Positions 13,538 through 43,480 of a DNA stretch of 64,000 bases are shown here, piece after piece. Below the pieces are notes generated by a model. It had not been told where the DNA came from and did no database searches. It was given only the letters and a program-made list of their open reading frames with translations. The position numbers and the translations under genes are program-made. The number at the start of each line of letters is the position of its first letter. Positions within the stretch are counted from its first letter, which is position 1. The stretch comes from Melastoma dodecandrum (lineage: Eukaryota; Streptophyta; Magnoliopsida; Myrtales; Melastomataceae): the NCBI GenBank assembly GCA_029817715.1, contig JARUPY010000164.1, positions 2,911,663 through 2,975,662 of the forward strand. Direction: 5' to 3'.

Positions 13538-13546
13538 TCGGTTGGG
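13538..13546 (+). repeat. Target-site duplication, left copy (9 bp)
   Basis: TCGGTTGGG directly precedes the GGGAGCGG terminus of the MULE and matches TCGGTTGTG after the other end at eight of nine positions. Nine-base duplications are the hallmark of the Mutator superfamily. Confidence 0.85.
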
Positions 13547-14400
13547 GGGAGCGGCTAAAGTCCCGTGCGTGGGACGTCCCGTGAGTTGTACTAAATTCGA
13601 CCCTGATTTAGTACATTGTACTAACAAAAATTAGTACACTTGTTATTACTGACAATGTACTAACTACAGTGTTAGTACATTGTACTAATGTGTACTGTTT
13701 TTGTACTAGTACAGTTAGTACATTGTATTAATGGTTACTGTTTTTGTACTAGTACAGTTAGTACATTGTACTAATGGTCACTATTTTTGTACTAGTACAG
13801 TTAGTACAATGTACAAGTTTTTTTTAGTACATTACAGGTGTACTAATTGGTACGAAACAGTAACAGTGTTTTTTAGTATAATGTACTAATGGCCACTGTT
13901 TTTGTACTAGTAATGGTTAGTACAATGTACAAAACTTTTTTAGTACATTTTTAGTACATTACAGGTGTACTAATTGGTACAAAACAGTAACAGTGATTTT
14001 TAGTACATTGTACTAATGGTTACTGTTTTTGTACTAGTACAGTTAGTACATTGTACTAAATGTTACTGTTTTTGTACTAGTATGCTGGGTACAGTGTACT
14101 AAATGTTACTGTTTTTGTACTAGTACTGGTTAGCACACTGTACTAAAAATCACTGTTACTGTTTTGTACCAATTAGTACACCTGTAATGTACTAAAAATG
14201 TACTAAAAAAGTTTTGTACATTGTACTAACCATTACTAGTACAAAAACAGTGACCATTAGTACATTGTACTAACTGTACTAGTACAAAAACAGTACCCAT
14301 TAGTACATTGTACTAACTGTACTAGTACAAAAACAGTACCCATTAGTACATTGTACTAACACTGTAGTTAGTACAATGTTAGTAATAACAAAACGCAAAA
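13547..14400 (+). repeat. Left terminal region: TIR and GTAC-rich palindromic array
   Basis: The outer 120 or so bases match the reverse complement of the right end, apart from about 17 extra bases (a second GTCCCGTG-type copy) at about 13570-13586. Inside, a unit built on GTACTAATGGTTACTG and TTTTTGTACTAGTACAG repeats several times. Units then reappear in the opposite orientation from about 14142 to 14400, so the left end can fold on itself around a centre near 14075. Such subterminal repeats usually bind transposase in MULEs; here that role is inferred. Confidence 0.85.
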
Positions 14401-15114
14401 TATTTGACGGAACTAATTTCATTGTGTACGTTTTTAGTATATTTCTAACAAAATCGAGCCTAAATTCGAACCCGGCGTCAACGTGAAATTACAATTTTGG
14501 ACAAACCCCCGTTCCCCAAAAGACTTCGTCTGAGTGTTGGTCTTATTCCCAGGTGAGTTTCCCCCGGAAGGTCAGATTCTTCTCTTCGCGTTTCAGTTTG
14601 TTCTCCTCGACCGCGTTACCTCCCTTTGATGCTACTTCAGGAAATCAGGCCAGACAACGAATGTACGTTCATGGGTAGGTACGGGATGGATGGGGCTTCC
14701 AATGGGGTAAATTAGGGTTTACCGATCTGTCGGGCCGTGGTTGCGTGGGGTGTGCTGGTTCGTCGGGGCGGTGGCTGTGGGTATCGTCAGGTGCGGGATC
14801 GTAGTAGGTTCGTACGGGTGAAGTGGTCGGTGAAGTGGTTTCCCGTGGACGTGGGTAATTAGGGCAAGGTCGTTCCCTCGGGGCTTTGGGTGTTTAGGGT
14901 TTAATCGTACACTGTGGGTGTCGTGGGTATTGTGGATGTTCGCTTGGGCGTATTTGGGGCAGCGATTAATCCCATTCTTTGATAGTTGGAATGGATTGGT
15001 GTGGTTTCGTTCGCGTGGGTTTGTTATTATGTTGTTGCTTATGTGTGGGTGTGTTCGCCGTCGGGACGGATTAGAGTATTGATTGATACCCTCGATTGCT
15101 TAGGTATATCAATC
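14401..15114 (+). promoter_or_regulatory. Leader/promoter region of the Ulp-like gene
   Basis: This non-repetitive stretch lies between the left terminal array and the first likely start codon. It is G-rich from about 14690 to 14980 with many GTGGGT words. No clear TATA box was found. An upstream in-frame ATG at 14986 would add 43 mostly hydrophobic residues without resemblance to anything, so I treat it as leader. Confidence 0.4.
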
Positions 15115-18100
15115 ATGGATATGGAGGACATCAACATTCGTGAAGACCAAGAGATGGAAGATTTCAGAGAAGATCCGGCGGATCAGTCAGGCAGTAAACG
15201 GACCAAGTCATCTGGCCTTGAGAAGGTGAATTCCCGGTCGTCCGTCCTGCGTCCGAAGAAGTTGGAGCAATAAGGTTTTATGCTAACTCCATTTGGTATT
15301 GTGGTAGGATTACATATACACACGGTGTAGCCCGAAGAAGTTGTGGGCGCTTTTCAATTCATTCGACGAGGATAGGAAGGCCGTGGTAAGAGAAGTTGGG
15401 TTCGGGGGGCTACTGCACATGGCCAGCCACAACATGAACCACAGAGCGTTGAGGCTCTGCTTGAGGATGTTCGACCCAACGAGACGAGTGATTGTCATAG
15501 ACGACGTGGAACACAAGTTGAGACCTGCAGACGTAGAAGCGATTCTGGGTCTGACTTGTATCGGATCTCCCGTTCCAATGAAAGGCTCACTCGAATGTGT
15601 TCGACCCGAGTTACGGGAGCACATAAAACTTGGGCAGATATCAATGAAGTCTGTCGAGGAGAAGTTGCGCGATCGGCAAGCGACGGATGAACTATTCAAG
15701 GCCGAGCTGGTGCTATTCATCCTGGGGTGCTACCTCTGTCCAGGCACTGCGTTTGACATCCCAAGGGGATATCTACTGTCAACAAGTGACGCGGGATCGA
15801 TTGTGAATTTCGATTGGGCGAGTCACGTGTTGGATACACTGTGCGATTATGTGAGGACGTGGAAATTGAGAAAGGCCGCGCGTTACATAGGCGGATGCGT
15901 ACACCTCCTAATCGTAAGTACTTCTGTTTGTAATGCATTTCCCTCCAAATACATAGGACGCGCAAAATTTGCGATCAACGTTTTTTACCGCTGCGTCATG
16001 TCAAGATGTTTTTCACAACAATGTTTGCAGGTATTTTTTGCCTGCAAGGTCAGTAAACCAGGATCACCGCTTTCAATATCTGGTCGGACGACCCCGTTAT
16101 GTGCTGAGTGGGATGATGCCCGGTTGCACGCATGTTTAAAAATGTCGGACGAAATTTACCTTGAGAAGGTATGATGTGGCATATTGAACTTTCTTTTTGC
16201 CACTGCCAGCTACGAACAATACCTATATTATTCGTACAGAACCAGGTTGAGGGGTGTTCTCAGTCGGGTAACGTTGATGCTCGCACAGTGCCGGATGAGG
16301 TCGACGACATTCAGACGCTGCTACAGAACGTAAAGGTAAAACATAAACTAAGCTCCAACCGATTAAGTTCACATTGATTCAGGAACATGTTAAGCCCCAA
16401 ACGTTGATATTGCTGAAGGGCGTTGATTTCCGTGTACGATTTGTGGAGCACGGCATGGATGACCTAAAGCGGCAAGTACGCACACTGTTACTTGAAGTCA
16501 GAGAGGTCCAGAGCATTGTTCGTGGCCTGGCAGACGCCATAACTACCCGTGGAGCCGCACGTAACGAGAAATCGCCGATGGAAGACGTCGCGGCCCCAGG
16601 TGCTGAATTCTTCAATACCACGGCAGAGGTGGACCGAGCTGTGCCAATTGAGGACAATAAACAACAGGACCCACTGAATGAAGCAGGCCCTTCTGCTGTT
16701 AACAAGAAGAAGGTAGTAGTCGAAGTCGGGTCACTGCTGCAGTCCGAGGGCTTCGACGATTCCCAGCCCACACCTGATATCGGACAGCATTCACCAAAAT
16801 CTAATGAAGGCTCGGAAGCAATGGAAAGAAGGGTGATGGCTGTTCTCGACAAAATGACCCTACTACTGGGACAGCCGCAAGCCAATCCTGGGGCAGGGAA
16901 CGATATCGTCGATTGCTTGTCACAGCCACAGGCAGTCGACGTGTTACAGATGGTGGTGTCACCCGAGGAGCCGCATCACATTAAAGACAGGATCGATGAC
17001 ATACCGGCATCACCACCTGCGCAACACCACGCCGTTAACAAGGTCAGATCACACAGCATTTCAGTTTCGTTGATGTACTTCATTAATTGTTAAACTCGGT
17101 TAATCCGGTTTTTTTATATTGACGTGTTATTGTTTAATACGGTTGTCATAGGAGAGTTTTTCTTCCACCAATCAGGTGAAGAATCCGGATAAAGTTCAGA
17201 CCCGTCGTGCTTCCGCGCGTAAGCCGTCCGTCTACGCGACATCTCCCTTCGTTACGGATAAGGCAGGGCCCCGGCGATCGAAGAGACTTCGTGAGAATAT
17301 TCCGGAGGTATATCATCACTCTTCACCCGTAGGTGTAGGGTGTCGGCGTAGCATTCAGCGATATTAACCAACTAGTCTTACAGAAGTTTGTTAATATGTT
17401 AATTTATAGGACATTGATAAACTAATTCCGGAAGATGTTGATTTAGAAGAGTTGAAATCTTTCAACGTGGGAGATTGGAATTTGTTGTCCTATGCTTCGA
17501 ATGAACTGCTCGATCCCAGGTTGGATTTTCTTGTTATTGCTTGTATTTTATTATGTGCATGAGAGTGTAGGGGTTCGTTATTCCGTCTGCACTGTGATTT
17601 GTATCATGCTATGATATTTATGTTGTTGCAGCGAACTGCTTTGTTTGGGACATTCTGTCAACATTTCAAGGCATGGAATGCTAACTCTGAAACCGAATAG
17701 GTGGATACAGAATGACGTACGAATGTGCTTTACCAGGAAATGCAATGCTTTACTAATTGTCCCTTGCAACGACATTCATAGCGATGATATGTATTGCAGA
17801 TCATCGACTACCACGGGGTCATGTTGAGCAGCGCCCAACCGGACGACGGACCCACGCGATGGTATCTATCTAGCTGGTTGGGGGTATGTCCTAATATTTA
17901 ATCTGAAGTTATCGTCATTGGGCAGAACCTTGCATCCCGTAATTATAGCGCCGCAAAGATGCCAGTGATCACTATCGACGATCGACAGAATCTTCTAAAA
18001 TTGTTCAAGCCCAACATCGGATCCAATGATTGCGTCCAGTTGGTAAGTTAAATGTTTTCATGATGTACCACCAAATTGATCATTCATAGCATTTGTACAT

Positions 18101-18780
18101 ATAGATTTGCTTATAATTTCATTTACAGATATACATACCGGTGTGTCTATCGGAGTCACACTGGTGCCTACAGGTGGTGAACTTTCGCGCAGGCGAAGTA
18201 CTAGTACTTGACACGATGAATAAGGGAGCATCGAACGTCCATGGGAGAATGGACCTGCATGTTCGAGTGCTGACCCTGCTGAAGGTTATTTTGGATGAGA
18301 ATGCCCAGCAATCGAGTGCGCGCACCGTTCCGGACATATGTTCATGGCCCGTTCGTTGCCCGGCTTACATCCCCCAACAGTTCATGTTGGGCAATGTGTA
18401 AGTATTGTTAACCCAAAATAATGAATTATAGACATGAAAACACTGATTTCTTTGTATGTGTTTTAGCGCTGATTGCGGAATTTTCGTCATGAAGTTCATG
18501 TCCATGTCGGACCCAACAGAGGGTCTTCCAGCCGTGGTGAGCTAACGCAACGGCCAAAATATTTGTATAATAGGGACTTCATGTATAAGCATCTGATGAG
18601 AACCATTGCTATTGCGGCTTGCAGCGTGTGCGCGCTTTTAACAGGTTTCGTCTTGCGATAAGTCTGATCAAGTGGCCGGGAAACGGACTGAAGAGCATGG
18701 TGCTGGGTAAGTTGAAGGATCGCCGAAAGCAGAGGGCACGCGCAGCGAAAGGATTACCCCAACCAAGAAAAGCTAGCTAA
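15115..18780 (+). CDS. Ulp1/C48-type cysteine protease, transposon-borne
   Basis: The predicted exons are 15115-15225, 15308-15913, 16031-16168, 16240-16335, 16383-17042, 17176-17307, 17410-17519, 17632-17716, 17800-17883, 17926-18042, 18129-18397, 18467-18536 and 18625-18780. All junctions are GT-AG and in phase, giving 877 residues. Residues 38-285 resemble the N-terminal domain of MULE Ulp-like proteins (CSPKKLWALF, VGFGGLL, LRPADVEAILGL). Residues 318-537 are polar with a probable coiled coil, and RRSKRLRE near 568 looks like a nuclear signal. The C-terminal protease has H724 (SESHWCL), D741 (VLDTM), Q796/Q797 and C806 (DCGIFVMKF), the full C48 set. The tail is basic. Ulp1 enzymes cleave SUMO or similar ubiquitin-like proteins; the substrate here is unknown. 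The gene is tail to tail with the transposase. Confidence 0.88.
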
Positions 18781-18968
18781 TATCTGTCAGTGGCAGTGGT
18801 GTACATTGTAACATTCTGTAAGTAACGGATCATTGACTGCTGCCACAAAAAGGTCAGATGTCCGACAGGTTTTGTTAGTACTGTTCCGTAATGGATCCCG
18901 GATATCAGTAGCACAAAATATTTTTTGTCGTTTAGCACTGTACGGCAGACATTGTAAATACCTGGGGC

Positions 18969-21086
18969 TTACATATTCATCTGCCCGACAACGGACTTTC
19001 CCTCGTCCAGACTGCCTTCTTGCATCGCATTTGCAGTGAACTCCGAAATTGTGTTTAATTTATCAGTTTCCATATTGCAAATACCATATTGATTAAACCT
19101 TGACATAGTCGGCAGTGATTCGCACCCCAGAATCAGCTTCTTTCGTTTACCCTTGTCACCTGGGGACGGACTTGCCTTGCCGTCAGACATCTCCACACTT
19201 TCAAGAGCTACCGTTAATTCTTGTATGGACTTGCGGACTTGCACGTAGGCGGCTTCAGTTTTGCCTCCAAGAAAACATAAATGACGGCACGCCGTCATAA
19301 GAATACATTGTCTAAATTCTTCAGTAGTCGCGTCGTGCCCGGAGCCGCCTGCGATAGAAGAATATGATAATCGTGCTCCCTTTGTCCAACGTTGCAGCAC
19401 GAGCGGCGGTGGGATGGACTTGATGCCTTCGATCTTCATAACGTGGAACATATGTGCGCAAGACAGTCCGTACGTTTCGAAATGTACGCAACTACCGGTC
19501 AACGACGGACGATGTTTGGCTGAATATACTTCAACCCCCAGTGATTCCTCCTCGTAACTTCCCAGCCAATATACTCGATTAATATTTCCATCTATCATAC
19601 CTTCAACAACGAACAATGCTTCCTTGTGGATCTGCAAATAAACCTTACGAAACGATGCTAGAGTGTAGATCCGACTTGCGTCCGCCTCGAGGCTGCGCAA
19701 CATGGTTCGCAATTGATATGCCTTACATGTCGAATTGTAATCCGCCATACTTTCCTTATGGCGCAGGTCTGCGACGGCTCGCTCGTAGTGATGTAAAAAT
19801 TCGTGCACTTTGTGTTTCGTCTTCAGGTACATTTTCATGAATGCGTGCATCCCTTCGCAACGCTGCGTGCTCCTAAGAGTAGCCCAGAAATGTCCTTGAC
19901 AATACGTCATCCACCACATTCGTCTGCTATCGTACAGCTGTTGTAGCCAGCGAATGTTAACCGACCCAGTATTTTTCATCATATCCTCCCACTCTTGCTC
20001 TACCTCATCGATGGACTTCGAATTGTACATGAAGGCAGAGATGCATCGTCTCAGCGTCGGATCATGTACCCTACGGACAATATTGCGACTCATGTGCCAA
20101 AGGCAAAGACGGTGTCTGGCTGTTGGCCACGTTTCTCGTATGGCGGCGATCATCGATCTATCGGCATCGGTGACAACGCTGATAGGTACTTTGGAGCCCA
20201 TAACCTCGCTGTGCGTACATAAAAGCCAGGTGTAATCCTCTACTGACTCATAAGCCATTAAGGCGGCACCAAAGACAATGGTCTGGTGATGGTTGTTGAC
20301 TCCGACGATGACAACCATTTGCATACCATATGCATTCGTCTTGAAGGTTGAATCTAAAGCGACAACGTCTCCGAATGCGTTGTAATCCAACTTAGATTTT
20401 GTGTCTGACCAGTACATACGGACGACTTCGCCGTCCTCAATGGCTGTCACCAATGACATGCCTTGATCGCAACCTTGTCTGGACAGTAGATATGCATATC
20501 CAGCATCAAACATCGAGCAACTTCCAGATCTTTCATCCTTCAGCTTGCGATTGTTCATGTCTTTCATTAAGAAGCCCACCCGTTCGTGCCCTCCAGAAGC
20601 GTAAACCAGCAGACGCATAATGTCGCATTGCTTGAAACCTACGCTTAACATTCGATTCACGGCGGCCATGTCCTCATCAGTCACTGCTCGCCTTTCGCAC
20701 ATGAAACACGATAGAGGGCCAGGCACCAACGCGTGATTGTGAGATAAATTCGCTACTGTGATATACCAACGACCGTTGGTGTCCTTTGCGGTTCTAACCT
20801 CGCAGTGACAGCCTGACCTCATGGACGGCCTCATTCGCGATGACCCGTCAACGGCGGATCTTCTCCTCGGATGGCCTTCTCGCGAGCATACCCAAGTATG
20901 CTTCACGGCCTCGCCACTTCGGCGACGTCGTATGTCGTTTTTCCTCGTAGAGAATCCGTGTACCAGTCTGTACATCCTGAAAATTTGACCAACCTCATCT
21001 GCTTCACCAAAAGTCATCTCCATCATCTTCTCCTCCGACAGTCCCGACACGATCATCAGACAGTCGGCTGTGTCCCCAGCCTCCAT
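18969..21086 (-). CDS. FAR1/FHY3-type MULE transposase
   Basis: This is a single uninterrupted 705-codon frame. Residues 33-120 form a WRKY-GCM1-type zinc DNA-binding domain, with C67, C93/C95 and H116/H118 as likely ligands. Residues 240-370 are the MULE transposase core: D245 in VALDSTFKTN, D307 in VVTDADRSM, the C328/H331 pair in CLWHMSRN, and E361 or E363 before EQEWEDMM. A SWIM-like zinc segment lies at 531-547 (C533, C543, H545), but the first Cys of the usual CxC is Gly531. The C-terminus has a basic KGKRKK patch. It should bind the inverted-repeat ends and catalyse cut-and-paste transposition in the nucleus. The stop is 189 bp beyond that of the convergent protease gene. Domesticated FAR1/FHY3 genes share the fold, but the location inside a TIR element argues for a transposase. 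Confidence 0.93.
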   Translation of the reverse strand: MEAGDTADCLMIVSGLSEEKMMEMTFGEADEVGQIFRMYRLVHGFSTRKNDIRRRRSGEAVKHTWVCSREGHPRRRSAVDGSSRMRPSMRSGCHCEVRTAKDTNGRWYITVANLSHNHALVPGPLSCFMCERRAVTDEDMAAVNRMLSVGFKQCDIMRLLVYASGGHERVGFLMKDMNNRKLKDERSGSCSMFDAGYAYLLSRQGCDQGMSLVTAIEDGEVVRMYWSDTKSKLDYNAFGDVVALDSTFKTNAYGMQMVVIVGVNNHHQTIVFGAALMAYESVEDYTWLLCTHSEVMGSKVPISVVTDADRSMIAAIRETWPTARHRLCLWHMSRNIVRRVHDPTLRRCISAFMYNSKSIDEVEQEWEDMMKNTGSVNIRWLQQLYDSRRMWWMTYCQGHFWATLRSTQRCEGMHAFMKMYLKTKHKVHEFLHHYERAVADLRHKESMADYNSTCKAYQLRTMLRSLEADASRIYTLASFRKVYLQIHKEALFVVEGMIDGNINRVYWLGSYEEESLGVEVYSAKHRPSLTGSCVHFETYGLSCAHMFHVMKIEGIKSIPPPLVLQRWTKGARLSYSSIAGGSGHDATTEEFRQCILMTACRHLCFLGGKTEAAYVQVRKSIQELTVALESVEMSDGKASPSPGDKGKRKKLILGCESLPTMSRFNQYGICNMETDKLNTISEFTANAMQEGSLDEGKSVVGQMNM

Positions 21087-21610
21087 AGTTTCCTACCCAG
21101 AAGGGCTATGGTCACTGACACTGCGAGTAAACAGCGATCAAACCCTTCCGAGCTCACAGTTGGGTATGGGGATTCAGTAAAATATATGAAGTTTCATGGA
21201 CCTACGGAAAGCAGTAAAAGAAAACCTCGTTAAACCCCCAGTTATTTTATTCCATGCATTGTCGCTCAGGTGATCCAATAGGATAACATGATATTAATAT
21301 AACAAAATAAACAACGAATAACCTACCACCGGTTTAGTAGAAGGCATTTAATTCATTGCTCATCATGCTTGCAGGGCCGCCGGTTTGATCTGTGTGCAGG
21401 ACTTATCCGACTGAACATTAATAATCCACCAACCACGGTCAGAGAATTCGAAGCGACATGGAACCGTCGATACTGCTCCCATTAACTTCCCTCAGCCAAC
21501 TCCAATTGTAACACCGATTTCTTCTATCCCACTCACCCTACGGGAACGCGCCCACTAACCCACTTCCACCGAAACACAGACACGGTAACCAAACCCTTAA
21601 GCCTCCCCAG
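21087..21610. promoter_or_regulatory. Divergent intergenic region, transposase and paralog 1
   Basis: These 524 bases separate the start codon of the minus-strand transposase from that of the plus-strand paralog, so promoters for both may lie here. No other coding frame is recognised. No obvious TATA motif decides the start sites; the stretch at 21270-21320 is AT-rich. Confidence 0.45.
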
Positions 21611-22572
21611 ATGAACGGCACTCAGTCGCAGGGTAGCACAATAAACGGCACTACGCCTCTGCGGAACTATGACATCCAGGTATGCTCCGTCCGACCCTTG
21701 CCATGTGAAAAAGCATGTCGTCTGAGATTGGAGATATGGCATGGTACGCGTACACTGCAAGACCGCCCGGGCTACGAGGTTACTTTCGACGTCCGTTTGC
21801 CGACCAACTTCCACGCTCCGTATGGCAACGGACAGTGGGTACGCGATCTACGTGCTACGCTGCTGCACCTGCTAGATAGAGAGCCCCATTTAAGTGAAAC
21901 AAACTGCGATGCCACCTTTGAACGTGTCATCCGTACCATCCACCTGCCGATACTGAAACTGCTGCGTCCGGGCACGAACAAGCTGCTCGTGAGGCTAAAC
22001 AGGTTTCACTACGTTTAGCGACGATGTTCTCCGAAAACAGGATATTCCAGATGCGACTGAAACTTGAGGTGGTCGACAACGTATACGCATGGGAGTTCAT
22101 CTTGAAGGACACTCGGGGTGTCGTCGACCTGGCATTGGCGGAGGGCATCCACGATATGGATATGCACAACGAGCTGTCCTTCCTCATCTGGAGATGCCCG
22201 CCCTTCGCCAAGAACGGCTCCTTCGTCTCCGCGGCGCTGGACCTCTTCTCCCACCAGAAGATCTCCATTGCACTGGTCATCGGTCCCCCTGAGTCCGCGA
22301 TGAACGACCCAAGGAGCATATGCGCGGCCTTTCCATTCGACAGCCTTCACTATTTCAATTCTTGGCGTGGGGGCGTCTTCATCCTGTGGAGGCGGGAGGA
22401 GGTGAGCATCCACTTCTTCGAGGAGCAGAGCGGATCGGCCAGTGCACTTGTTGTGGTACGTGCTCGTATAAATACCTGGACTAAGTTCTCATCAACTTTC
22501 GCACGCACATTCATCATATGCATCGTACTTTCCACGTAGGACTACCCAAAGAACCTGTTATCGGACGTTTAG
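21611..22572 (+). pseudogene. Paralog 1 of unknown MULE gene, frameshifted
   Basis: It encodes a protein closely related to 23179-24124. Shared blocks are PCEKACR, GYEVTFDVRL, LLRPGTN, DTRGVVDLAL, SFVSAALDLF and SIHFFEE. After LLRPGTNKLLVRLNR the frame is lost: between AAACAGG and CGT this copy has eight bases where the intact copy has nine (about 22000-22010). Everything downstream stays open in the shifted frame to the splice donor at 22456. The intron ends at 22539, and a 33-base last exon (DYPKNLLSDV and stop) matches the intact copy. The single 1-bp deletion is therefore the only defect seen. The family is not one I recognise; no signal peptide or membrane segment is evident. Confidence 0.8.
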
Positions 22573-23178
22573 CTCCCCGGGTCTATGTCGCGAAGATGCA
22601 TATGCATATTTCTCTTCGACTGGAGCGGTCCTCACGGACGGTGGACGCGATAATTTTTGTTTTAATAGGCCATCGGACCCATTTCGTGAAACATCATAAG
22701 CTGCAAAATTTAGCTCTTGTCCGGTATACGCTGATGGGGAAAACATTCTGTACTGTAAACCCTACCGTAAAATTTCGCTGATGCCCTTTCTTGCTCCCAT
22801 TATATGCGTTCTCCAGCAGTATGATTGTTCGTCGTCTCTAACCCCTTATGCCAACTTCGACACTCCCTCCCGTGTACGCCGCATACGATGGTCCCCGTGC
22901 AAATTCAGCCCCTTGTTGTTTACTAGACGAACTGTAATCATACTGTTCCATGGACACAAACTACAACTCGATGGAGAACGAGTGCATCTGGGGACGAATG
23001 CATTGACAACATTAGGAGGGAAACCCTTACTTTCAACAACCGCAGCAGATCATTAATTTCGAAGTGATAGGGAACCAAAACCCTCCTCGCATTTACTAAT
23101 AAATTAAGGTCACAGTTTACAAATTCCTTTACCCCTACTACTACTCCGCCATTTCAACAGCCACCAGCCGAATCCACC
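22573..23178. other. Spacer between the two paralogs
   Basis: No protein is recognised. The sequence is not an obvious copy of the spacer upstream of paralog 1. It must include the promoter and leader of paralog 2, with CCACC directly before its start codon. Confidence 0.4.
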
Positions 23179-24124
23179 ATGGCGAACGACAGAACGCCAT
23201 CGTCCAACTTCCACATCCGGGTAAGCTCCTTCCGATCCTGTCCCTGTGAGAAAGCATGTCGGATCAGGGTAGAGTTATGGTCCGGAACTAGCGTATCGCC
23301 GGGCCGCGCAGGCTACGAGGTTACTTTCGACGTGCGTCTACACTCAAAACTCCAGCCTCAATGTGGTAACGGAGAGTGTGTGCATGATGTGCGTGTTACG
23401 TTGCTCCAAATGCTTGGTATGGAGCCCCAAATAGACGAAAACAACTGTGCGCCCACCGTGGAACGTCTGCTCCGGTTCTTGCACCTGCCACTACTCAACC
23501 TTCTGCGTCCGGGGACCAATAGGATACAACTCCAGCTAAACAGGCCGTCCCTTCGTGTAGCAACCGCGTTATCCGAGAACAAAATATTTCAGCTGCGTCT
23601 CCAGCTCGAAGTGTACGACGACTCACCGGTGTGGGAGCTCATGTTAAATGACACCCGAGGGACGGTCGACCTGGCGCTTGCACAGGGAGTCGGTGATTCG
23701 GACATGAAAAAGGAGATGTCCCTACTCGTTTGGAACTGCCCAAACTACCGTAACGAATACTCCTTCGTCAACGCTGCAGTTGAACTCTTCACCGTCCAGA
23801 ACACGTGCATGGCGGTGGTCGCTAATATCCCGTCCACCGCACTGAACGATGCAGCCAGCTTATGCGAGCAGTTTCCATTCAGCGACCATCACGTTCTGCA
23901 TTCTTGGCAAGGCGGCGCCCTCGTCCTGTGGCGACGCCAACGGATCAGCATTCATTTCTTCGAGGAGATGGTCGCAACGACGAGTGCTATCGTTATGGTA
24001 CGTGTACGCCTACTCAACCCAAATAACTTTCCATTCGACCTTCATACGCTCGTAACACATCTGCGTTGTATGTATGTCTACGCAGGACTACCCGAGGAAC
24101 CTCTTCTCCGACTTGTCAAATTAA
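23179..24124 (+). CDS. Paralog 2, intact protein of unknown family
   Basis: Two exons, 23179-23997 and 24086-24124, joined at GT-AG sites in phase 0, give 285 residues. The start codon lies in a good context (CCACCATGGCG). The protein has a Cys-rich start (SCPCEKACR, residues 16-24), a beta-rich GYEVTFDVRL block, a Leu-rich LLRPGTNRIQLQLNR block, DTRGTVDLAL, NAAVELF, SWQGGALVLWRRQ, SIHFFEE and a short acidic/polar tail. I see no known catalytic motif. Its paralog directly upstream has the same intron position. Codons show preservation of protein rather than DNA sequence (diverged third positions, conserved blocks), hinting at past selection. Accessory genes in comparable elements (mudrB, VANB, VANC) have roles in insertion or anti-silencing; any such role here is a guess. 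Confidence 0.8.
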
Positions 24125-24403
24125 GGACTCTTCGTGCTAGACGTAATTCCCTTTTGTAGAACGTGTGTGACTACGGTATGTCAATGCCCTGGCGGGGTTC
24201 CAAGCCGCATCATAACATTGCGGCCAACAATTTTTGGGCACCTCGCATCCTCTGTGTGCTTTTGCGTTGTAATATCCCTTATGAACGTCGGAACTGTGTA
24301 ATCCTCTTTAATATCGCCATGGACTTCGCAGTGTCCTCGGGAGAACATAACCTGTAATTCGACTTGGTTTCCTACAATTCCTGACCCCCTTTCACCAACT
24401 TCC

Positions 24404-24652
24404 ATGTCACCGTTACCCCAACTTTCTTACCTGCCTCAGCAACTCGTCCTCACCGCGATCTCCCTACATCGCAGGCTTCGAATCGCAAATGCGTGGGTGC
24501 CCGTCACTGGCCGCAAGTATCTACACAAGCTGAGGATCGGTTTCCCGGCCAATAACGTGCTCCAGACCCTAGCTGAGCTGGGAACGCACAAACTCACTTT
24601 TATTGGGCAAAATGGTAATATCACCCCCAAGGCAGGGTTGGAGTTAGGCTAG
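24404..24652 (+). CDS. Small open frame near right end of MULE
   Basis: An 82-codon frame, with LHRRLRIANAWVPV and GRKYLHKLRIG among its residues, ends just before the right terminal array. Its base composition resembles the neighbouring coding DNA more than the AT-rich array. It is not a third copy of the paralog pair and matches nothing I recognise. It could be chance, a last exon, or a remnant. Confidence 0.25.
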   Translation: MSPLPQLSYLPQQLVLTAISLHRRLRIANAWVPVTGRKYLHKLRIGFPANNVLQTLAELGTHKLTFIGQNGNITPKAGLELG

Positions 24653-24663
24653 GAGTTAGGCTA

Positions 24664-25172
24664 CTGCGAATGTACTAATGGTTACTGTTTATGTACACTA
24701 GTACAGTTAGTACATTGTACTAAAAAACACTGTTACTGTTTCGTACCAATTAGTACACCTGTAATGTACTAAAAATGTACTAAAAAAGTTTTGTACATTG
24801 TACCAACCATTACTAGTACAAAAACAGTAACCATTAGTACAATGTACTAAAAATCACTGTTACTGTTTCGTATCAATTAGTACACCTGTAATGTACTAAA
24901 AATGTACTAAAAAAGTTTTGTACATTGTACTAACTGTACTAGTACAAAAACAGTAACCATTAGTACAATGTACTAACCATTACTAGTACAAAAACAGTGA
25001 CCATTAGTACAATGTACTACCTGTACTAGTACAAAAACAGTACCCATTAGTACATTGTACTAACACTGTAGTTAGTACATCGTTAGTAATAACAAGTGTA
25101 CTAATTTTTGTTAGTACAATGTACAAAATCAGGGTCGAAATTAGTGCAATGCACGGGACGTTAGCCGCTCCC
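24664..25172 (-). repeat. Right terminal region: TIR and GTAC-rich array
   Basis: This is the inverted partner of the left end. The outer part runs from GTACTAACACTGTAG near 25060 to GCCGCTCCC at 25172 and matches the left end inverted, including the CAGGGTCGAA word. Inside, units such as GTACTAGTACAAAAACAG repeat at 24820, 24935, 24985 and 25027. Unlike the left end, it is not a long self-palindrome. Confidence 0.85.
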
Positions 25173-25181
25173 TCGGTTGTG
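25173..25181 (+). repeat. Target-site duplication, right copy (9 bp)
   Basis: TCGGTTGTG follows the last base of the right inverted repeat and differs from the left copy (TCGGTTGGG) at one position. Confidence 0.85.
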
Positions 25182-28555: not shown

Positions 28556-29580
28556 TTGTCCTCAAAATGTAACTTCCTTAGCTCTAATGAGGACGGCTCA
28601 TGCGTCAACAAAGAGAGGTGGATGATTCCTTCTCATCAACTCTTCGGTTTCTCATGTCTCCTCTTCAATCCCTGGGTGTCGCCACAAGATTTTTACCATG
28701 GGAATCCTCTTATTCTGCAAGTCCTTAACCTGTCTGTCGAATACAACGATTAGTTATAAGACTGTTTCCAACTACTGACTAACATCCACATCCTCATCCT
28801 CTAGCGCATGCCTCAGATCAGCCACATACTTCCTCAGCATCGACGCATGAAAGGTATTATGCACATGAGACATTCTCGGTGGCAACACTAAACGATATGC
28901 CATCTTCCCGACACGCATCAGTATCTCGTATGGTCCAATGTACCTTGGACTTAACTTCCCTCTTTTCTCAAATCGGACGACAGATTTTATCGGCGATACC
29001 TTAAGAAAAACATAATCACCGACCTCAAATTCCAAGGGTCTTTGTCTATTATCCACATAACCCTTTTGTCTATCCTGAGCCACTTTCAACCTCTCTCTAA
29101 TAGTCTTAATCACCTCCGTCGTGATTTGTATCATGTATGAACCTACGATATTCTCCTCGCTCCCTTCATTCCAACACAATGGGGACCGGCAATCTCATCC
29201 ATAAAGTGCTTCAAATGGTGCCATCTTAATGCTTTCTTGGTAGCTATTGTTGTAAGCAAACTCAACCAATGGTAGATGGTCCTCCCACGAGCCACGGAAC
29301 TCAAGTGCACATGCTCTCAGCATATCCTCTAAGATACGGATGACCCGCTCTGTCTGTCCATCGGTTTGAGGGTAAAAAGTTGTGCTCATCTTAATCTTTG
29401 TCCCCAATGTCTCATGAACACTTCCCCGCGGGGCTTCCGGTGTTCGCCTTTCACACGTTGACACACCAAACGAGCCGCATACTTGCTACATCTCGTTTCA
29501 TGCCGTGTCATAAAAAATTTCTTTACGTGCCACCCGGATATACGCCATACGGACTCCTATGTGCCTCATCTAAGATTTGA
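28556..29580 (-). pseudogene. Integrase and chromodomain remnant (gypsy)
   Basis: From high to low coordinates: the zinc-binding-region words EELRLQILDEAH and YGVYPGG near 29530-29600, then EHRKP near 29440. The frame then jumps directly to LGTKIKMSTTFYPQTDGQTERV, so the first part of the catalytic core is deleted. After a break, KLSPRYIGPYEIL and FHASMLRKYVAD lead to a stop at about 28770. The chromodomain (FDRQVKDLQNK, VKILWRHPGIEEET) is readable beyond that to about 28600. The word AAGTGGGAGAGAAC next to the LTR is the likely polypurine tract. Confidence 0.85.
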
Positions 29581-29708
29581 AGTCTCAACTCCTCGATCGT
29601 CGGAACACATACTCTTTCCTTATATATAATCAATCCCACCGTCGAGATCTTAAAGTCCTTGCCTTCTCCGCTATCTATCCTTGACCTAATAGATTTTAAA
29701 TACCCGTC

Positions 29709-30935
29709 CTAACCTTGTCCCTCCTTTAATGCAACTATCATCTGGTCTCCCACTTGCATACTCGCAACAATCGCTTTAGATTCATTCTCCCCAAGTCGAG
29801 CGTCAAATTTACTCATCTCCTCACACAACATCCATTCCCTAATCATCAGACTCGTAATCGAACAACTCATTTGACTCAAAGCGTCGGCAACAACATTGGC
29901 CTTCCCTGGGTGGTACGATATTGTACAATCGTAATCCTTTAGTAACTCTATCCATTGTCGCTGCCGCATATTTAGCTCATTTTAGGCAAATAAATACTTG
30001 AGGCTCTTATGATTCGTAAAGATATCAAACGTCTCACCATAAAAGTAGTGCCTCCATATCTTGAGAGCAAATACCACCGTGCCAGCTCTAGGTCGTGCGT
30101 AGGATAGTTCTTCTCGTGAGGTTTCAATTGCCTTGATGCTTACGCTACGACCCTTCCATTCTGCATAAGCACATCACCAATTTCATGAAGTGATGTGTCA
30201 CAATAAACTGCATATCCCCAACTCTCATTAGGGATAACCAATATTGGAGCACTCGTCAACCTCCTTTTCAACTTAGCAAAACTCCCCTCACATGCCTCTG
30301 TGCATACAAAGGTTGAACCCTTCTTTGTCAACTCCGTCATTGGTTTTGCAATTTTTCAAAATCCCTCTACATCGACGGTAGTATCTTGCTAACCCCAGAA
30401 AACTACAAGCATCCGTCACACTACGAGGTTATGGCCCCCTAGCTACCCCTTCGACCTTCATTGGGTCTACTTCTACTCCTTTCGCTGAGATTACATGACC
30501 TAGGAAGGTTACCCGGTCTAACCAAGGCTCGCTTGTTCAACTTCTCATATAACTCATTCTCCTTTAAAACTTTCAACACCGTCCCCAAATGCTCCTCATG
30601 CTCAGTTACACTCGCTGAATACACCAGGATGTCATCAACAAACTGAACTACAAACTGATCTAAGTACGTTCGAAACACTCGATTCATCAACTCCAAGAAA
30701 CAGTTGGGGCATTCATCAATCCAAAGGACATAACTCGAAACTCATAGTATCCGTACCTCGTCCTAAACGCCATTTTCTTAACATCCTCATCCCCCACTCG
30801 AATCTGGTGATACCCAAACCGTAAGTCAATCTTAGAATACATAAAAGGATCCTTCAATTGATCAAATAAGTCATCAATTCTAGGCAACGAATACTTGTTC
30901 TTAATTGTCACCTTGTTAAACATACGATAATCCAC
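29709..30935 (-). pseudogene. Reverse transcriptase and RNase H remnant (gypsy)
   Basis: The reverse transcriptase half carries [20 protein letters not shown] and [13 protein letters not shown], and after a frameshift FVDDILVYS, the catalytic YVDD-type motif. RNase H words follow (TSAPILVIP, YAVYCDTSLHEIG), ending in [20 protein letters not shown]. Stops and frameshifts separate at least four fragments. The enzyme would have copied the element's RNA into DNA. Confidence 0.9.
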
Positions 30936-31127
30936 ACAAACCTTAGACTACCATCCTTTTTCTTTACAAAGAGAACTGGTGCACCCCATGGCGACACACT
31001 AGGACGTATAAATCTTTTGTTCAAAGGTCTTGAAGTTGCACCTTAAGCTCCCGTAACTTAGCGAATCCCATACGATAAGGTGTCTTGGATATCGGCTCCG
31101 TCCCTGACATTATTTCTATCACAAAAT

Positions 31128-31870
31128 CTACTTCCCTCCTAGAGGCAATCGTGGCAACTCCTCGGGAAACACCTTAGGAAACTCGCGGACCACTAGAACC
31201 TCTTGGAGCTTTGGTAGGTCTTGCTCCGAGTTTAACACCATTGCTAGGAACAACTCGTTGCCCTTCTCCCATTGGTTTTGCATGGTCGCAACCGTCGCAT
31301 AAACTTGTCCACCAGGAGTACTTCGGCCTCTTCCAAATGTTATATCTACATCGAGGATCTCAAAACATATTTCCGTCCTTCCACATTCCATCTTGGCATG
31401 GTGTTCCCCGAGCCAATCCATGCCCAAGATTATGGCAAAATCACAAATCTGAAAAATCACCAAATTAGCCACTGTAACTATTGCAATCACCTCACATCTC
31501 ATACAAACTGATTGGGTATCATTATTACCATTCGGCATCTAAACTATTAATGTCTTTTCTACACACTTACTTTCGAAGCTCGACCCCGACACAAATACCT
31601 CAGCTACAAATGAATGTGTTGCCCCAGTATCGAACAATGCGTACGCCTCTCGACCATCAACCAAGACCGTACCTGCAATGACGTTCTTCGATGCACTCAT
31701 GGTCGCTCGAGTCATCGCATTCACCCATCCTCGGCCTCGTGTTACATTAGCTAACCCTCGTGTGGAGTTTGATCCTGAAGGGGAACGCCTCCCCTGACTC
31801 TGTTGTTGCACTCAGCGGAGGACTCCCTCGGTCTTTCCCGCGCAATTTCACAATATATGTCCTTCCTGAC
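31128..31870 (-). pseudogene. Aspartic protease remnant (gypsy)
   Basis: The active-site word ALFDTGATHSFV lies at about 31600-31640 within GTVLVDGREAYALFDTGATH, and the flap-distal ILGMDWL lies at about 31400. A frame break near 31540 separates the two. A degraded Cys-rich knuckle region may precede it near 31860-31930. It would have cut the polyprotein. Confidence 0.85.
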
Positions 31871-38670: not shown

Positions 38671-40439
38671 ATTCCCCCTATGGAGATATCCCTTGTCGAC
38701 GCCCCTACAAATCTTGCGGTCTGTGATACTGCTAATGAGGAGGATATCCTTCCTTCTAATCAAGTGGAACATGACATTGAGGATGTCGATCCCTTGTTGT
38801 CTAGACATCCCTTTTCACGGATGAATATACATGATCACAAGATGAAGGGTGTGTCACTACTCCCGAGCAAAAGCCTATATCTAATAAGGTGGCTTCTGCC
38901 TCTTTGAAGCTGCTGGCCAGAGCAATAAAATCTGGCATCACCACTACGATCAAGTTGAAAAGGAAGAGCCCTGAGGTTTTAGCGAAGTCCTTGAACAACC
39001 TTTAGTTAAGCGAGTAAAGGAAACAAGTATTCTTGTTTCCAAGCTCTCGAAGTTTGTGACTCCACTTGACTTATATTTAATTCAGCATGGCATGAAAAGT
39101 TTTGAGTATGACCTTACTGACAGACGACTTACTGCTACTTGATGGTAGACTTTCAGTGGTTTGTTGCAAACGCACATGATGTCGCTACTCTTTGAGAAAT
39201 TCAATATAAGAAACTTTTGTGAGTCCTGTTGTGATCTCTTTGGAGATTTTGTACGAATTCTACTCAAACATGATCATATACAGAGATTAATCAATTCCAA
39301 CTTTCTTAAAAATAACAATGGGAGTGAGGACACTTGTCTACTTCATATATGATGTGAATGAGTTGAATGGCTGTGAAGGTCATATTTCGTCTATCAAGAT
39401 GGATAAGAATCATGCTTATAACATATCATCACCATCACGTAGAATGTGACAACCCCAATGGTTGGAAGCCAAAAGCGGAGGTTGTGTCGCAATAATAGAA
39501 ATGACAACCAGGGCTTAAGGGAAAAGTGTTATAATAGTAAAGGTCCCTCCTACTACCATTGCTATTATTGTTGGTGTAATCACAACCTCCACATAACCAA
39601 CTACAAGGCATTTATTTCGGTTCAAGAAAGACTTTCTCCCTCACACTACTGTCACGCATGGCTGTTGTGTCACAATAATAGATATGACAACCAGGGCTAA
39701 AGGGAAAAGTGTTGTAATAGTAAAGGTCCCTCCTACTACCATTCCTATTATTGTTGGTGTAATCACAACCTCCACATAACCAACTACAAGGCATTTATTT
39801 CAGTTCAAGAAAGACTTTCTCCCTCACACTACTGTCACGCATGGCTGTGCTTCAACGTCAAGTTAATACTAGTTTCACATGATACCGAAACTGGTGACAA
39901 ATCGAATCTGTTCCAATGAGCTAGTTTCTGTGAAAATGCATCGACGGTCCTGTCATTGATGAGGCAGAGTGATCCTCTGCATCTCCATTTGGAAAATATT
40001 GAAATTGTTTCTTTTAAGCCAAATATTTAATGTTGTGGGTTGGCTTTATTGTTTTGATGTTTGTAGGTGTTAATGTTGTTGTCGATTCAATAAAGTGTTT
40101 AATTATGTTAATGTGGTTTACGAGGTACTTGATGATTGGATTGATTCGGTGCAAAGGGAAAGTAATATTAAATTGGTGAAGTGTCTCGTAGACGAGTTGA
40201 GAAACTACTACCCTTTTGTAGTAGTTATGTTAATAACGGGAATGCAAGGTACAACAAATAAGGCATTACATACGAATGTGATTTTGCGAATGGATTTTAT
40301 AAAGGGATGTAGTTCATGATAAGAACAAACTTCTTCATTTAATCAACAATTATAATATATAGAACCAATTCAATTATCAGATATTTGAATCATATAAGAA
40401 GTAATGATTTTCTTATGATTATGAGAATTCCCCCTTTGG
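38671..40439. other. No gene recognised; contains a tandem duplication
   Basis: Short open frames at 38659-38907, 39161-39352 and 40095-40319 match nothing I know. The only clear structure is the 183-bp tandem duplication listed separately. Confidence 0.4.
39481..39846 (+). repeat. Two tandem copies of a 183-bp unit
   Basis: 39481-39663 and 39664-39846 are nearly identical head-to-tail copies, each starting GTTGTGTC(G/A)CAATAATAGA and ending CACGCATGGCT. They differ at only a few bases (for example GGGCTTAAGG versus GGGCTAAAGG), so the duplication looks recent. Confidence 0.92.
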
Positions 40440-41519
40440 AGGGCGCATTTCGGGAATGCGCCCCCATGCGACCTAAATCCCAAACAATAGGGCGGATCCC
40501 TCATTTTGTCTAGGCTTCCTTTACATAACCTGGCGTAGCATCCTAAATCCCACGATCGGCACCTTCTAAATCCTCGTCCCCGCGTCCCCGTTAGCCCCTC
40601 TTATGTCGTTCTCGTCTTCGTGCCAGCGCGACGACCTTACCCACGACCTGACGACCCTTACCCACTACCCGACGACGCTCACCCACGACCCACGATCCAA
40701 CGACCTACGACCTACGATCTGACGATCCGATGACCCTTTTACAATATTTTTCCTTAGCCATGTGTTTGCTATTTAGTCGGAGTTGAAGTTATTTAGGTTA
40801 AGGTTAAATGAGTGAAAGATTTTAGTTAGGGTTTGAATAAGTAGAATAGTTTATAATTTTCTTAGAAATTGGTGAATTGTCTTCTTTAGATTGCTACAAT
40901 TAACGATTTATGTATTTTTTTTTGGTTGTAGGTTTCGGAATCTCTGGTTGGAAGTGTTAAACTAGTAAGATCAGCACTTTTGTTTAAGTTTCGACGACGC
41001 ACATTCACTTTTGTTTGTAATGGGAGGCGATTAATAGTAATGAAGGAATTAGTTACAGTATAAGTCCAATTAAGTGGATTAAGGTAGATGATGATGTAGA
41101 TTATGATAAATTTCAAAGTGCAATTGTTTGAGGTATAAAATTAAATGAATGATGTAGATTGGAGATAGGTCATAGATATCTGATGCCTTCTTATGGTCAT
41201 ACTGAGGTTAAGTTTATTATGGTGCCAATAAGCGATGATGATGATGATGTTAGGTTGTTGGTGGAATTCACTACAAGTAATGCAACCAAATTTAGGAAGT
41301 ATACGTGATTTCCGTTTATGGTAATTCAGGTAACGAAGGAATATGATCATGCAATGATAATCAACAAAGTAACTTTTCGATTGTACAAGTGAATGTTAAT
41401 TATCCACAAAACCTGGAGGATGCTGCAATTGTTAAGGATGTAGTGAGTGAAAATATTGGTGCATTTAGAAATGATCATGGGGGAGTAGCCGTGTTGCTTT
41501 TACTGAGTATTAGGATGAT

Positions 41520-43480
41520 GGAATTGATAGAGTCGATGTTGAGGAAGATCGTATCGTAGATGCAATGATGCATTCTGACGATGATGCTAATACGGAGGAA
41601 GAAATGTCTAATGAAATAAATAGGAGAGACGATGAGGATGTTGCTAATTTGGGGTATTTATTAGAGGAAACGATGTTGGCCCCTTCGAAAAATGAGCAGA
41701 GAAAACACTTCATTTTTATCGATATTAGCGATACTAGAAAGGTGGTTTTTGATGAGAATGGGGATGAAGAAGTTGTGGATGATGTTGACTCCCTAACTGA
41801 ATTTCAGAAAGGGACGCGTTTCAAGCACAAAATTCATTTGATTCACACGGAGAATACATTTCATATTAATTACAATAACGAAATAGTCAAGTTAGATAAA
41901 AGGCTTTGGTCTGTTTTTTGTTCTATGTATGGATCTGGTTGTAAGTGGAGATTACATATAATATAATGTACTTGTGATGTTGAATGTGAAATCACGATTG
42001 TTGGTAGACCACATAGTTGTTTAAATTATGTGTTATCTCAGAATCATGTGCATCTTGATTGCAACTTCATGGCACCATACTTTCCTTGTTTCGTTAGGGA
42101 ATTATCCGAAGTGAAAGTTTCTTTCTTACGGGATGTGATTAAGGAGTGTTTTAGATATGACGTATCTAGGATACGTGTGTGGGATGTAAAAAGAAAAGTA
42201 ATAGCGATTGAATACGACGATTGGGATGAATCTTACAATGATGTTTCCATATCTGTTGAATGCGATTAGAATAGCTAATCCTAGAAATGTGGTCAGTTGG
42301 GATAGTTCATATAATGTTAGTGATTTGGTTGTTTGGATAGAGTATATGTGCATTCAAGCATTGTCATCCTGTTGTTCGCGTAATGGCACATTTATGTATA
42401 GGAAGTATTGGCATAAGCACTTAATTGCATGCAGTATGGACGGTATGAACCATATTGTTCCGCTTGCATTTGCAATCGTAGATGAAGAAAGTTACGATTC
42501 ATGGAGTTGGTTTCTAAGATGTCTGAAAGGCTACATAGTAGGAGAACGGACTGGAGGTATTTGTTTGATTTTTGATAGACATGCAGGCATACAAGCAGCT
42601 GTCAATGATCGGGATATTGTTTGAACCCCGCCTTTTGCCAATTGGCGCGATTTTGTATTAGATTTCACTAGCAATTTCAATACCAGATACAAGAATGTAT
42701 TATGCAAAATGTGATTGGTAGTAGCAGCTAGAAAGTCAACGCCACCAAAGTACAGATGAGCCTTGAACAAGTTGTTAAAGGCATTGCCAGAGATGTCTCA
42801 GTTCCTCGCTGAAATGCGACCGGAGTAATGGTCGCTGACTAATGACGGTTTCAATAGATATGGGGTAATGACAACCAATTTGAGTGAGAGCTATAACTCA
42901 GTGCCATAAATCTCCCAATTCTTGCTCTAGTTAGGAAGATATGGTATAATTGTGTTGCATATTGTATTAATAGACGGGATGATGCGGAAGATGCGATTAA
43001 GGTCGGTGAGAAATTCACAACTCCTTGTGATGGAAAAAGCGAAACGGTTGCAAGTAGTGTTTTTGGACAGACAGTTGGGTCATTTTTACGTGAAAACAAC
43101 ATCGAAACAAGAAGGCGTATTTAGAGGCACGTACATACACGTGCAAGAAATGGCAAATATATCAAATTCCTTGTTCCCATGCTTTGGCCTGTTATGCATA
43201 CTTACATATTGACAGGACCAATTAAATAAGTCGTTTCAATACTTTCGAATGCCAGAGGGCTATATATGTATTGCGATGGCATTAATTTGATTGCAAGGAA
43301 GATTGGCAGGAAAATCAATTATGAAGATGAAGCCTGATCCTAAAAGAGTAAGGCCACATGGGCGGCCAAGAACGACACAAATACACAACGAAATGGATAT
43401 TAAATAGAAAGCATGTAAAAATAGTTGTTGTAAAAAATAGGGTCATAATCGACGTAATTGTCCGAATCAGTCTAACGATT
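41520..43480 (+). pseudogene. MuDR-type MULE transposase remnant
   Basis: The N-terminal MuDR DNA-binding region reads FQKGTRFKHKIHLIH, then GSGCKWRLHI and VGRPHSCLN, followed by SQNHVHLDCNFMA and an AIEYDDWDESYN word. The core follows (YRKYWHKHLIACSMDG, VPLAFAIVDEESYDSWSWFL, ICLIFDRHAGIQAAV), then TNDGFNRYGVMTTNLSESYN in part. A SWIM-like word QIYQIPCSHALACY lies near 43160-43195 in another frame. The C-terminus has a GRPRTTQIHNEMD motif and a CCxHxC knuckle (KKGHNRRNCPN-like) near 43420-43470. Frameshifts near 41965, 42270 and 43150 and several stops inactivate it. Confidence 0.88.

What the first reader, a model, noticed from the sequence alone, without database searches (positions are those of the whole stretch)
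21611..24124. Tandem pair of unrecognised genes carried by the MULE
Two paralogs of a protein family I cannot name sit head to tail inside the element with the same intron position. One is intact (285 residues), the other has a single 1-bp deletion. Shared blocks include GYEVTFDVRL, LLRPGTN, DTRG-VDLAL and SIHFFEE. They occupy the place where other autonomous Mutator-group elements keep accessory genes (mudrB; VANB and VANC), so they could be a new class of transposon helper or anti-silencing factor.
Basis: partly seen in the sequence, partly recalled or inferred. Interest (0 to 1): 0.88.

Follow-up and report, generated by a model that had tools for sequence, protein, structure and literature searches.

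The report
Orphan gene pair inside plant transposon
A plant jumping gene of the Mutator type carries, next to its transposase, two sister copies of a protein-coding gene that matches almost nothing in the databases searched; selection has kept its sequence, so it may help the element move or escape silencing, but what it does is unknown and it could still be a captured passenger.

Summary
Two paralogous two-exon genes lie head to tail at 21611-22572 (copy A, one net 1-base shortening) and 23179-24124 (copy B, 285 codons, intact). They share 52% of residues and a phase-0 intron at the same place. Both lie inside an 11,626-bp Mutator-like element (13547-25172) with ~0.45-kb terminal repeats, a 9-bp target duplication (8/9), an open FAR1/MULE transposase and a Ulp1-protease gene.

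A and B diverged under purifying selection (omega 0.38, LRT 30.9). No Pfam or PDB relative was found; one protein relative was, an 83-residue Melastoma candidum protein (59% and 58% identical to B and A) that runs on into the exon-2 tail.

The last ~95 residues resemble the first third of a LINE-type EEP endonuclease, without its catalytic Glu. This rests on recalled comparison sequences, of which 2 of 3 aligned. If right, the protein is not a nuclease.

Best reading: a new accessory-gene family of this MULE, in the slot of vanB, probably a binding protein. A helper or anti-silencing role is untested, and a captured passenger is a serious rival. No plant genome could be searched, so homologs between other MULE ends were not counted.

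The parts
13538..13546 (.). left target-site duplication TCGGTTGGG
   Evidence: 8 of 9 bases equal to the right copy TCGGTTGTG
13547..14016 (+). left terminal inverted repeat, rich in ~43-bp repeats of GTACATTGTAC / GTACTAGTAC type
   Evidence: 91% over 455 columns against the right end reversed; tandem repeats; inverted repeats
15308..18780 (+). multi-exon gene (extent approximate, no gene model made) with Ulp1 protease (Peptidase_C48) exon at 18117-18398; probable KI-ULP/VANC-type gene
   Evidence: PF02902 E 5.4e-07; 15308-16171 matched no Pfam family, its KI/PMD name is recalled
18969..21092 (-). transposase: FAR1 DNA-binding + MULE domain, 707 codons stop to stop; DDE read at DSTF (from residue 247), TDAD (from 308), STQRCEGMH (from 408)
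   Evidence: PF10551 E 8.4e-25, PF03101 E 3e-15; relatives; motifs
21611..22455 (+). copy A exon 1, frame broken once at 22004-22008
22456..22539 (+). copy A intron, 84 bp, GT-AG, phase 0
22540..22572 (+). copy A exon 2 (DYPKNLLSDV, stop)
23179..23997 (+). copy B exon 1, 273 codons (P0001)
23716..23997 (+). part of copy B exon 1 (residues 180-273); residues 180-258 resemble the N-terminal third of a LINE-type EEP endonuclease, catalytic Glu absent
   Evidence: hhalign (against recalled sequences, 2 of 3 align); weak Foldseek/VIA rows for TDP2 and other EEPs
23998..24085 (+). copy B intron, 88 bp, GT-AG, phase 0
24086..24124 (+). copy B exon 2 (DYPRNLFSDLSN, stop)
   Evidence: the Melastoma relative continues with DNPRNIFSDV at the same joint
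24707..25172 (-). right terminal inverted repeat
25173..25181 (.). right target-site duplication TCGGTTGTG

Best explanation
The pair is a transposon-borne accessory gene family for which I found no description, duplicated in tandem and carried as normal cargo of a probably autonomous Ulp1-type MULE. Shown: two-exon genes, common descent, purifying selection, location inside an element with TIRs, TSD, an open transposase frame and a Ulp1 gene, and one relative in another plant whose sequence runs on into the same tail. Inferred: the protein is a non-enzymatic, probably nucleic-acid- or chromatin-binding partner of the element's transposase or of its Ulp1/VANC-type protein, in the role of VANB or MURB. 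Its C-terminal ~95 residues probably descend from the first third of a LINE-type EEP endonuclease, now without catalytic residues and reused as a structural module. Two copies would have let one drift; A is broken in this insertion and B would carry the function.
For: Inside TIRs and TSD, next to an open 707-codon transposase frame. omega 0.38 over 269 codons, 2dlnL 30.9; residues 3-122 0.39 (13.7), 125-179 0.13 (20.9), 180-273 0.54 (3.84). Same intron site in A and B, same tail in A, B and the Melastoma protein. Melastoma is 49/83 and 48/83 identical to B and A while A-B is 40/83, which suggests (unequal rates aside) that the duplication is about as old as the split from that lineage or older. 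A conserved host gene would be expected in many annotated plants; only 1 of 7,603 candidates scored E<=10, although the same database gave 22 hits for the transposase, of which the 15 that name an organism are all from flowering plants.
Against: No evidence of expression, transposition or binding. Homologs between other MULE ends could not be counted: no plant genome could be searched (genome search did not complete), and the genomic setting of the Melastoma protein is unknown. omega <1 could have arisen in the host before capture. One of two copies is broken. Third-position GC differs somewhat from the transposase (B 0.64, A pieces 0.61 and 0.77, transposase 0.53), which neither supports nor excludes a separate origin. 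The EEP resemblance rests on recalled sequences; 1 of 3 did not align, and it was the first, the weakest recognised by Pfam and without any EEP match in the PDB, that aligned best. MULEs often carry passenger fragments.
Confidence: 0.5

Rival explanations
1. Captured passenger: the MULE transduplicated host sequence, possibly a chimera of an unknown gene piece and the start of a LINE endonuclease, and it was duplicated in tandem. It has no role in transposition and decays; A already has.
For: MULEs commonly carry captured fragments (PMC2528002 and PMC13317346, passages). The C-terminal part looks like a truncated LINE endonuclease without its active site. A has a broken frame.
Against: omega 0.38 with A and B at 52% identity and conservation of the tail into Melastoma point to long selection on a complete gene, not a fresh fragment. 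No host source was found, within the limits of those searches.
Confidence: 0.33
2. Anti-silencing factor: the pair does what VANC does, binding motifs in the element (for example the GTACATTGTAC/GTACTAGTAC arrays of the TIRs) and causing loss of methylation.
For: Accessory slot in a MULE; dense tandem motif arrays at both ends, and VANC targets evolve by tandem repeat formation (PMC5735166, passages).
Against: No DUF1985/DUF287 or other Pfam domain. The element has another gene, with a Ulp1 domain, of the type called KIU/VANC (PMC13317346, passage).
Confidence: 0.12
3. Active nuclease helper: the C-terminal EEP-like part cuts DNA and assists excision or integration.
For: EEP-like alignment of residues 180-258.
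Against: Only about the first third of the fold is present; the Glu of the TETR/METK strand (recalled motif) has no acidic counterpart at that place; the strand-1 Asn is Arg in A; the gene ends before the later EEP motifs (recalled).
Confidence: 0.03

Closest known systems
vanB of the Arabidopsis VANDAL21/Hiun MULE
   Same: Accessory gene of a plant MULE, protein of unknown function (PMC6446971, passage)
   Different: Sequence relation not tested: no VANB sequence was at hand. No Arabidopsis protein appeared among the hits (none; one), which have limited reach.
VANC / Kaonashi-ULP (KIU) genes
   Same: MULE accessory gene; KIU is one of three genes in its elements (PMC13317346, passage)
   Different: VANC carries DUF1985/DUF287 (PMC5735166, passage), absent here by Pfam; the Ulp1 gene of this element is the better counterpart. 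KIU elements of Arabidopsis are non-TIR MULEs, this one has TIRs
mudrB of maize MuDR
   Same: Accessory gene beside the transposase
   Different: Relation not tested; mudrB is one gene, here there is a tandem pair
MULE-Solanaceae_1 group
   Same: Listed with an 'unknown ORF and PMD (antisens)' (Table 1 of PMC6446971, passage)
LINE-type EEP endonuclease (Exo_endo_phos, PF03372)
   Same: Residues 180-258 align with the first ~79 residues of one recalled LINE sequence, and nearly as far with a second
   Different: Not detected by Pfam, no alignment to the third recalled sequence, no catalytic Glu, truncated to about a third

Membership tests
Mutator-like element (host of the pair) | TIRs and 8-11 bp TSD | tested here: met
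   TIRs 91% over 455 columns, TSD 8 of 9 bases
Mutator-like element (host of the pair) | MULE transposase domain | tested here: met
   PF10551 E 8.4e-25 above cut-off
Ulp1-carrying MULE (KI-MULE type) | Ulp1 protease domain gene in the element | tested here: met
   PF02902 E 5.4e-07, 30.1 bits against 20.7 cut-off
VANC (the pair as member) | DUF1985 / DUF287 domains | tested here: not met
   no Pfam family at E<=1 for B and both pieces of A
VANC (the pair as member) | sequence-specific loss of methylation | not testable with these tools
   needs plants
VANB | sequence homology to VANB21 | not tested
mudrB / MURB | sequence homology to MURB | not tested
   no MURB sequence at hand
EEP (Exo_endo_phos) domain | sequence match to the family | tested here: inconclusive
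   no EEP family for the C-terminal pieces of B and A or for P0025 at E<=10; hhalign P 4.1e-5, 1.3e-3 and 0.23 against three recalled LINE sequences
EEP (Exo_endo_phos) domain | fold | tested here: inconclusive
   model of residues 176-273 pLDDT 62.5; TDP2 and other EEPs occur among weak rows but IF3-C and Alba folds score as high or higher
EEP (Exo_endo_phos) domain | catalytic Glu of strand 2 and later motifs | tested here: not met
   stretch at the place of the Glu reads NIPST / GPPES / NPPSF in B, A and Melastoma (the motif itself is recalled); gene ends soon after

The most novel reading that the evidence does not exclude
A previously undescribed class of MULE accessory protein, made of an orphan N-terminal domain fused to a dead LINE endonuclease fragment, is maintained by selection as a tandem gene pair in Ulp1-type MULEs of several flowering plants and is needed in trans for their transposition or escape from silencing.
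Probability: 0.25. Interest if true: 0.7.

Novelty: new variant of a known kind. Interest (0 to 1): 0.45.

Why it matters
If the pair is a maintained accessory gene, it adds another, apparently unrelated kind of helper beside mudrB and vanB/vanC, and shows that plant MULEs have recruited helpers repeatedly. It would also be a case of one transposon class building a gene from part of another (LINE). Copy B is intact and short, so it can be tested directly.

Tried and rejected
Family searches of B, of A's two pieces and of the C-terminal pieces: Pfam, NCBIfam and PDB sequences gave nothing or chance-level rows (for example DUF3119 with P0025 at E 0.044, far below its cut-off; ribosomal S2 with B at E 0.47). 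Protein search with B alone: 989 candidates, none at E<=1. Profile search with A's pieces: 1 hit among 7,603 candidates.

Scans for DNA relatives: viral contigs with A4 and with a recalled LINE sequence, genome contigs likewise, plasmids with B: none confirmed. Those collections are not plant genomes, so the absence says little. A search of papers for LINE peptide words found none. I looked for a LINE endonuclease in the window with three motifs: only copy A itself matched. The first recalled LINE sequence found no EEP in the PDB (one unrelated row at E 1.7); the third found exonucleases and AP endonucleases from E 0.0028, yet it does not align with the pair.

Translations were in the wrong frame; corrected. 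The first alignment A1 misplaced single end residues; A2 replaced it.

Full report
Setting. The window is plant DNA (inferred): of 22 hits for the transposase, 15 name an organism and all 15 are flowering plants, many called FAR1-RELATED SEQUENCE-like (Quercus, Citrus, Rosa, Fragaria and others; 7,992 candidates scored, a capped list). The element runs from 13547 to 25172. Its ends read GGGAGCGGCTAA and match as terminal inverted repeats (91% over 455 columns), flanked by TCGGTTGGG and TCGGTTGTG, 8 of 9 bases equal. Both ends hold arrays of ~43-bp repeats built of GTACATTGTAC and GTACTAGTAC. The transposase frame (21092-18969, minus strand, 707 codons stop to stop) has FAR1 and MULE domains and motifs consistent with DDE. 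A plus-strand gene at about 15.3-18.8 kb carries a Ulp1 protease exon (PF02902 E 5.4e-07). Read by eye, its His, Asp and Cys motifs are present. Its upstream part looks like the KI/plant-mobile-domain region by recall only; Pfam gave nothing for it.

The pair. Both genes are on the plus strand, divergent from the transposase. B: 23179-23997, intron 23998-24085, 24086-24124, 285 codons. A: 21611-22455 with one frame break at 22004-22008, intron 22456-22539, exon 2 22540-22572. tblastn of B against the window finds A in two frames at E 2e-38 and 1.4e-52 and nothing else below E 4. Introns are 84 and 88 bp, phase 0, same site; they still align at 54 identities and 29 mismatches. Nucleotide similarity found by blastn covers the coding part and intron only (21672-22559 against 23213-24105, 67%).

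Selection. Nei-Gojobori dN 0.353, dS 0.754, ratio 0.47 over 269 codons; bootstrap 95% of pN/pS 0.48-0.74. A codon-model fit gives omega 0.38; omega = 1 is rejected by 2dlnL 30.9. By region: residues 3-122 0.39 (13.7), 125-179 0.13 (20.9), 180-273 0.54 (3.84, borderline). The middle is most constrained and the C-terminal part, the LINE-like one, least. This is an average over both lineages and includes any time before the genes entered the element.

Relatives. P0001 alone found nothing at E<=1 among 989 candidates. The profile with A's pieces found one protein among 7,603 candidates: P0025, Melastoma candidum MLD38_039735, 83 residues, E 1.8e-25. It covers residues 201-273 and continues with DNPRNIFSDV, matching exon 2 of B (DYPRNLFSD) and A (DYPKNLLSDV). 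That supports the intron independently, though the Melastoma gene's own exons were not seen. Over the 83 shared positions B-Melastoma is 49, A-Melastoma 48 and A-B 40 identities, so the duplication is probably not recent. The search relies on shared 5-residue words and predicted proteins, and genes inside transposons are often masked from annotation (established knowledge), so rarity in the database is not rarity in nature.

C-terminal resemblance. Residues 180-273 of B begin with LLVWNC, then helix, strand, helix, FPF, GG..LW (secondary structure from the model). This recalled the start of plant LINE endonucleases. hhalign of the 3-row C-terminal alignment against a recalled 98-residue LINE sequence gives score 30.7-31.0, P 4e-5, probability 69-70%; the best of 200 shuffles is 22.1 and of 138 windows of FAR1-type proteins 16.4. 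A second recalled sequence gives 23.0 (P 1.3e-3; best of 100 shuffles 21.2) in the same register; a third does not align (11.2; 32 of 100 shuffles reach it). A profile of all three gives P 7.7e-5, probability 62%. The stretch at the catalytic Glu reads NIPST, GPPES and NPPSF in B, A and Melastoma; strand 1 is WNC in B and WRC in A. Structure comparison is inconclusive: EEP proteins recur among weak Foldseek rows (TDP2, 3mpr, 3teb), but unrelated folds score as well or better. I hold the LINE origin of this piece at about 0.6. If true, it argues against enzyme function and is neutral between recruitment and passenger capture.

Function. In the literature seen here, MULE accessory genes are mudrB (unknown, apparently needed for integration), vanB (unknown), vanC (anti-silencing) and mutB (DNA binding) (PMC6446971, passages). 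VANC carries DUF1985 and DUF287 (PMC5735166, passages). KIU genes, the Ulp1-bearing VANC type, are one of three genes in their elements (PMC13317346, passages). By elimination the pair sits in the vanB slot; no sequence comparison with VANB or MURB was possible. I commit to a non-enzymatic accessory protein at 0.5, a passenger at 0.33, a VANC-like anti-silencing role at 0.12 and an active nuclease at 0.03.

Novelty. I found no description of the family in paper searches of the open library (listings; passages seen in PMC6446971, PMC5735166, PMC13317346, PMC10398659 and PMC2528002). Most subscription papers are not held and Repbase was not searched, and an 'unknown ORF' is already listed for MULE-Solanaceae_1. 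So I file this as a new variant of a known kind: an unfamiliar accessory gene, in a tandem pair, in a familiar type of element.

Noticed in passing
13547-14391 and 24707-25172: Both element ends hold dense arrays of ~43-bp repeats built of palindromes GTACATTGTAC and GTACTAGTAC; of 13 and 10 exact copies in the window, 13 and 9 lie in these ends. They could be binding sites for an element-encoded protein.
   Followed up: partly
15308-18780: Gene with a Ulp1 protease domain, reading convergent with the transposase; its His, Asp and Cys motifs are present by eye, so the protease may be active.
   Followed up: partly
28775-31538 (minus): Open frames that read like pieces of a Gypsy-type retrotransposon polyprotein, identified by eye only.
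   Followed up: no
41514-42621 (plus): Open frames that read like a second, different MULE transposase, identified by eye only.
   Followed up: no
39481-39848: Two tandem copies of a 183-bp unit, 96% matching.
   Followed up: no
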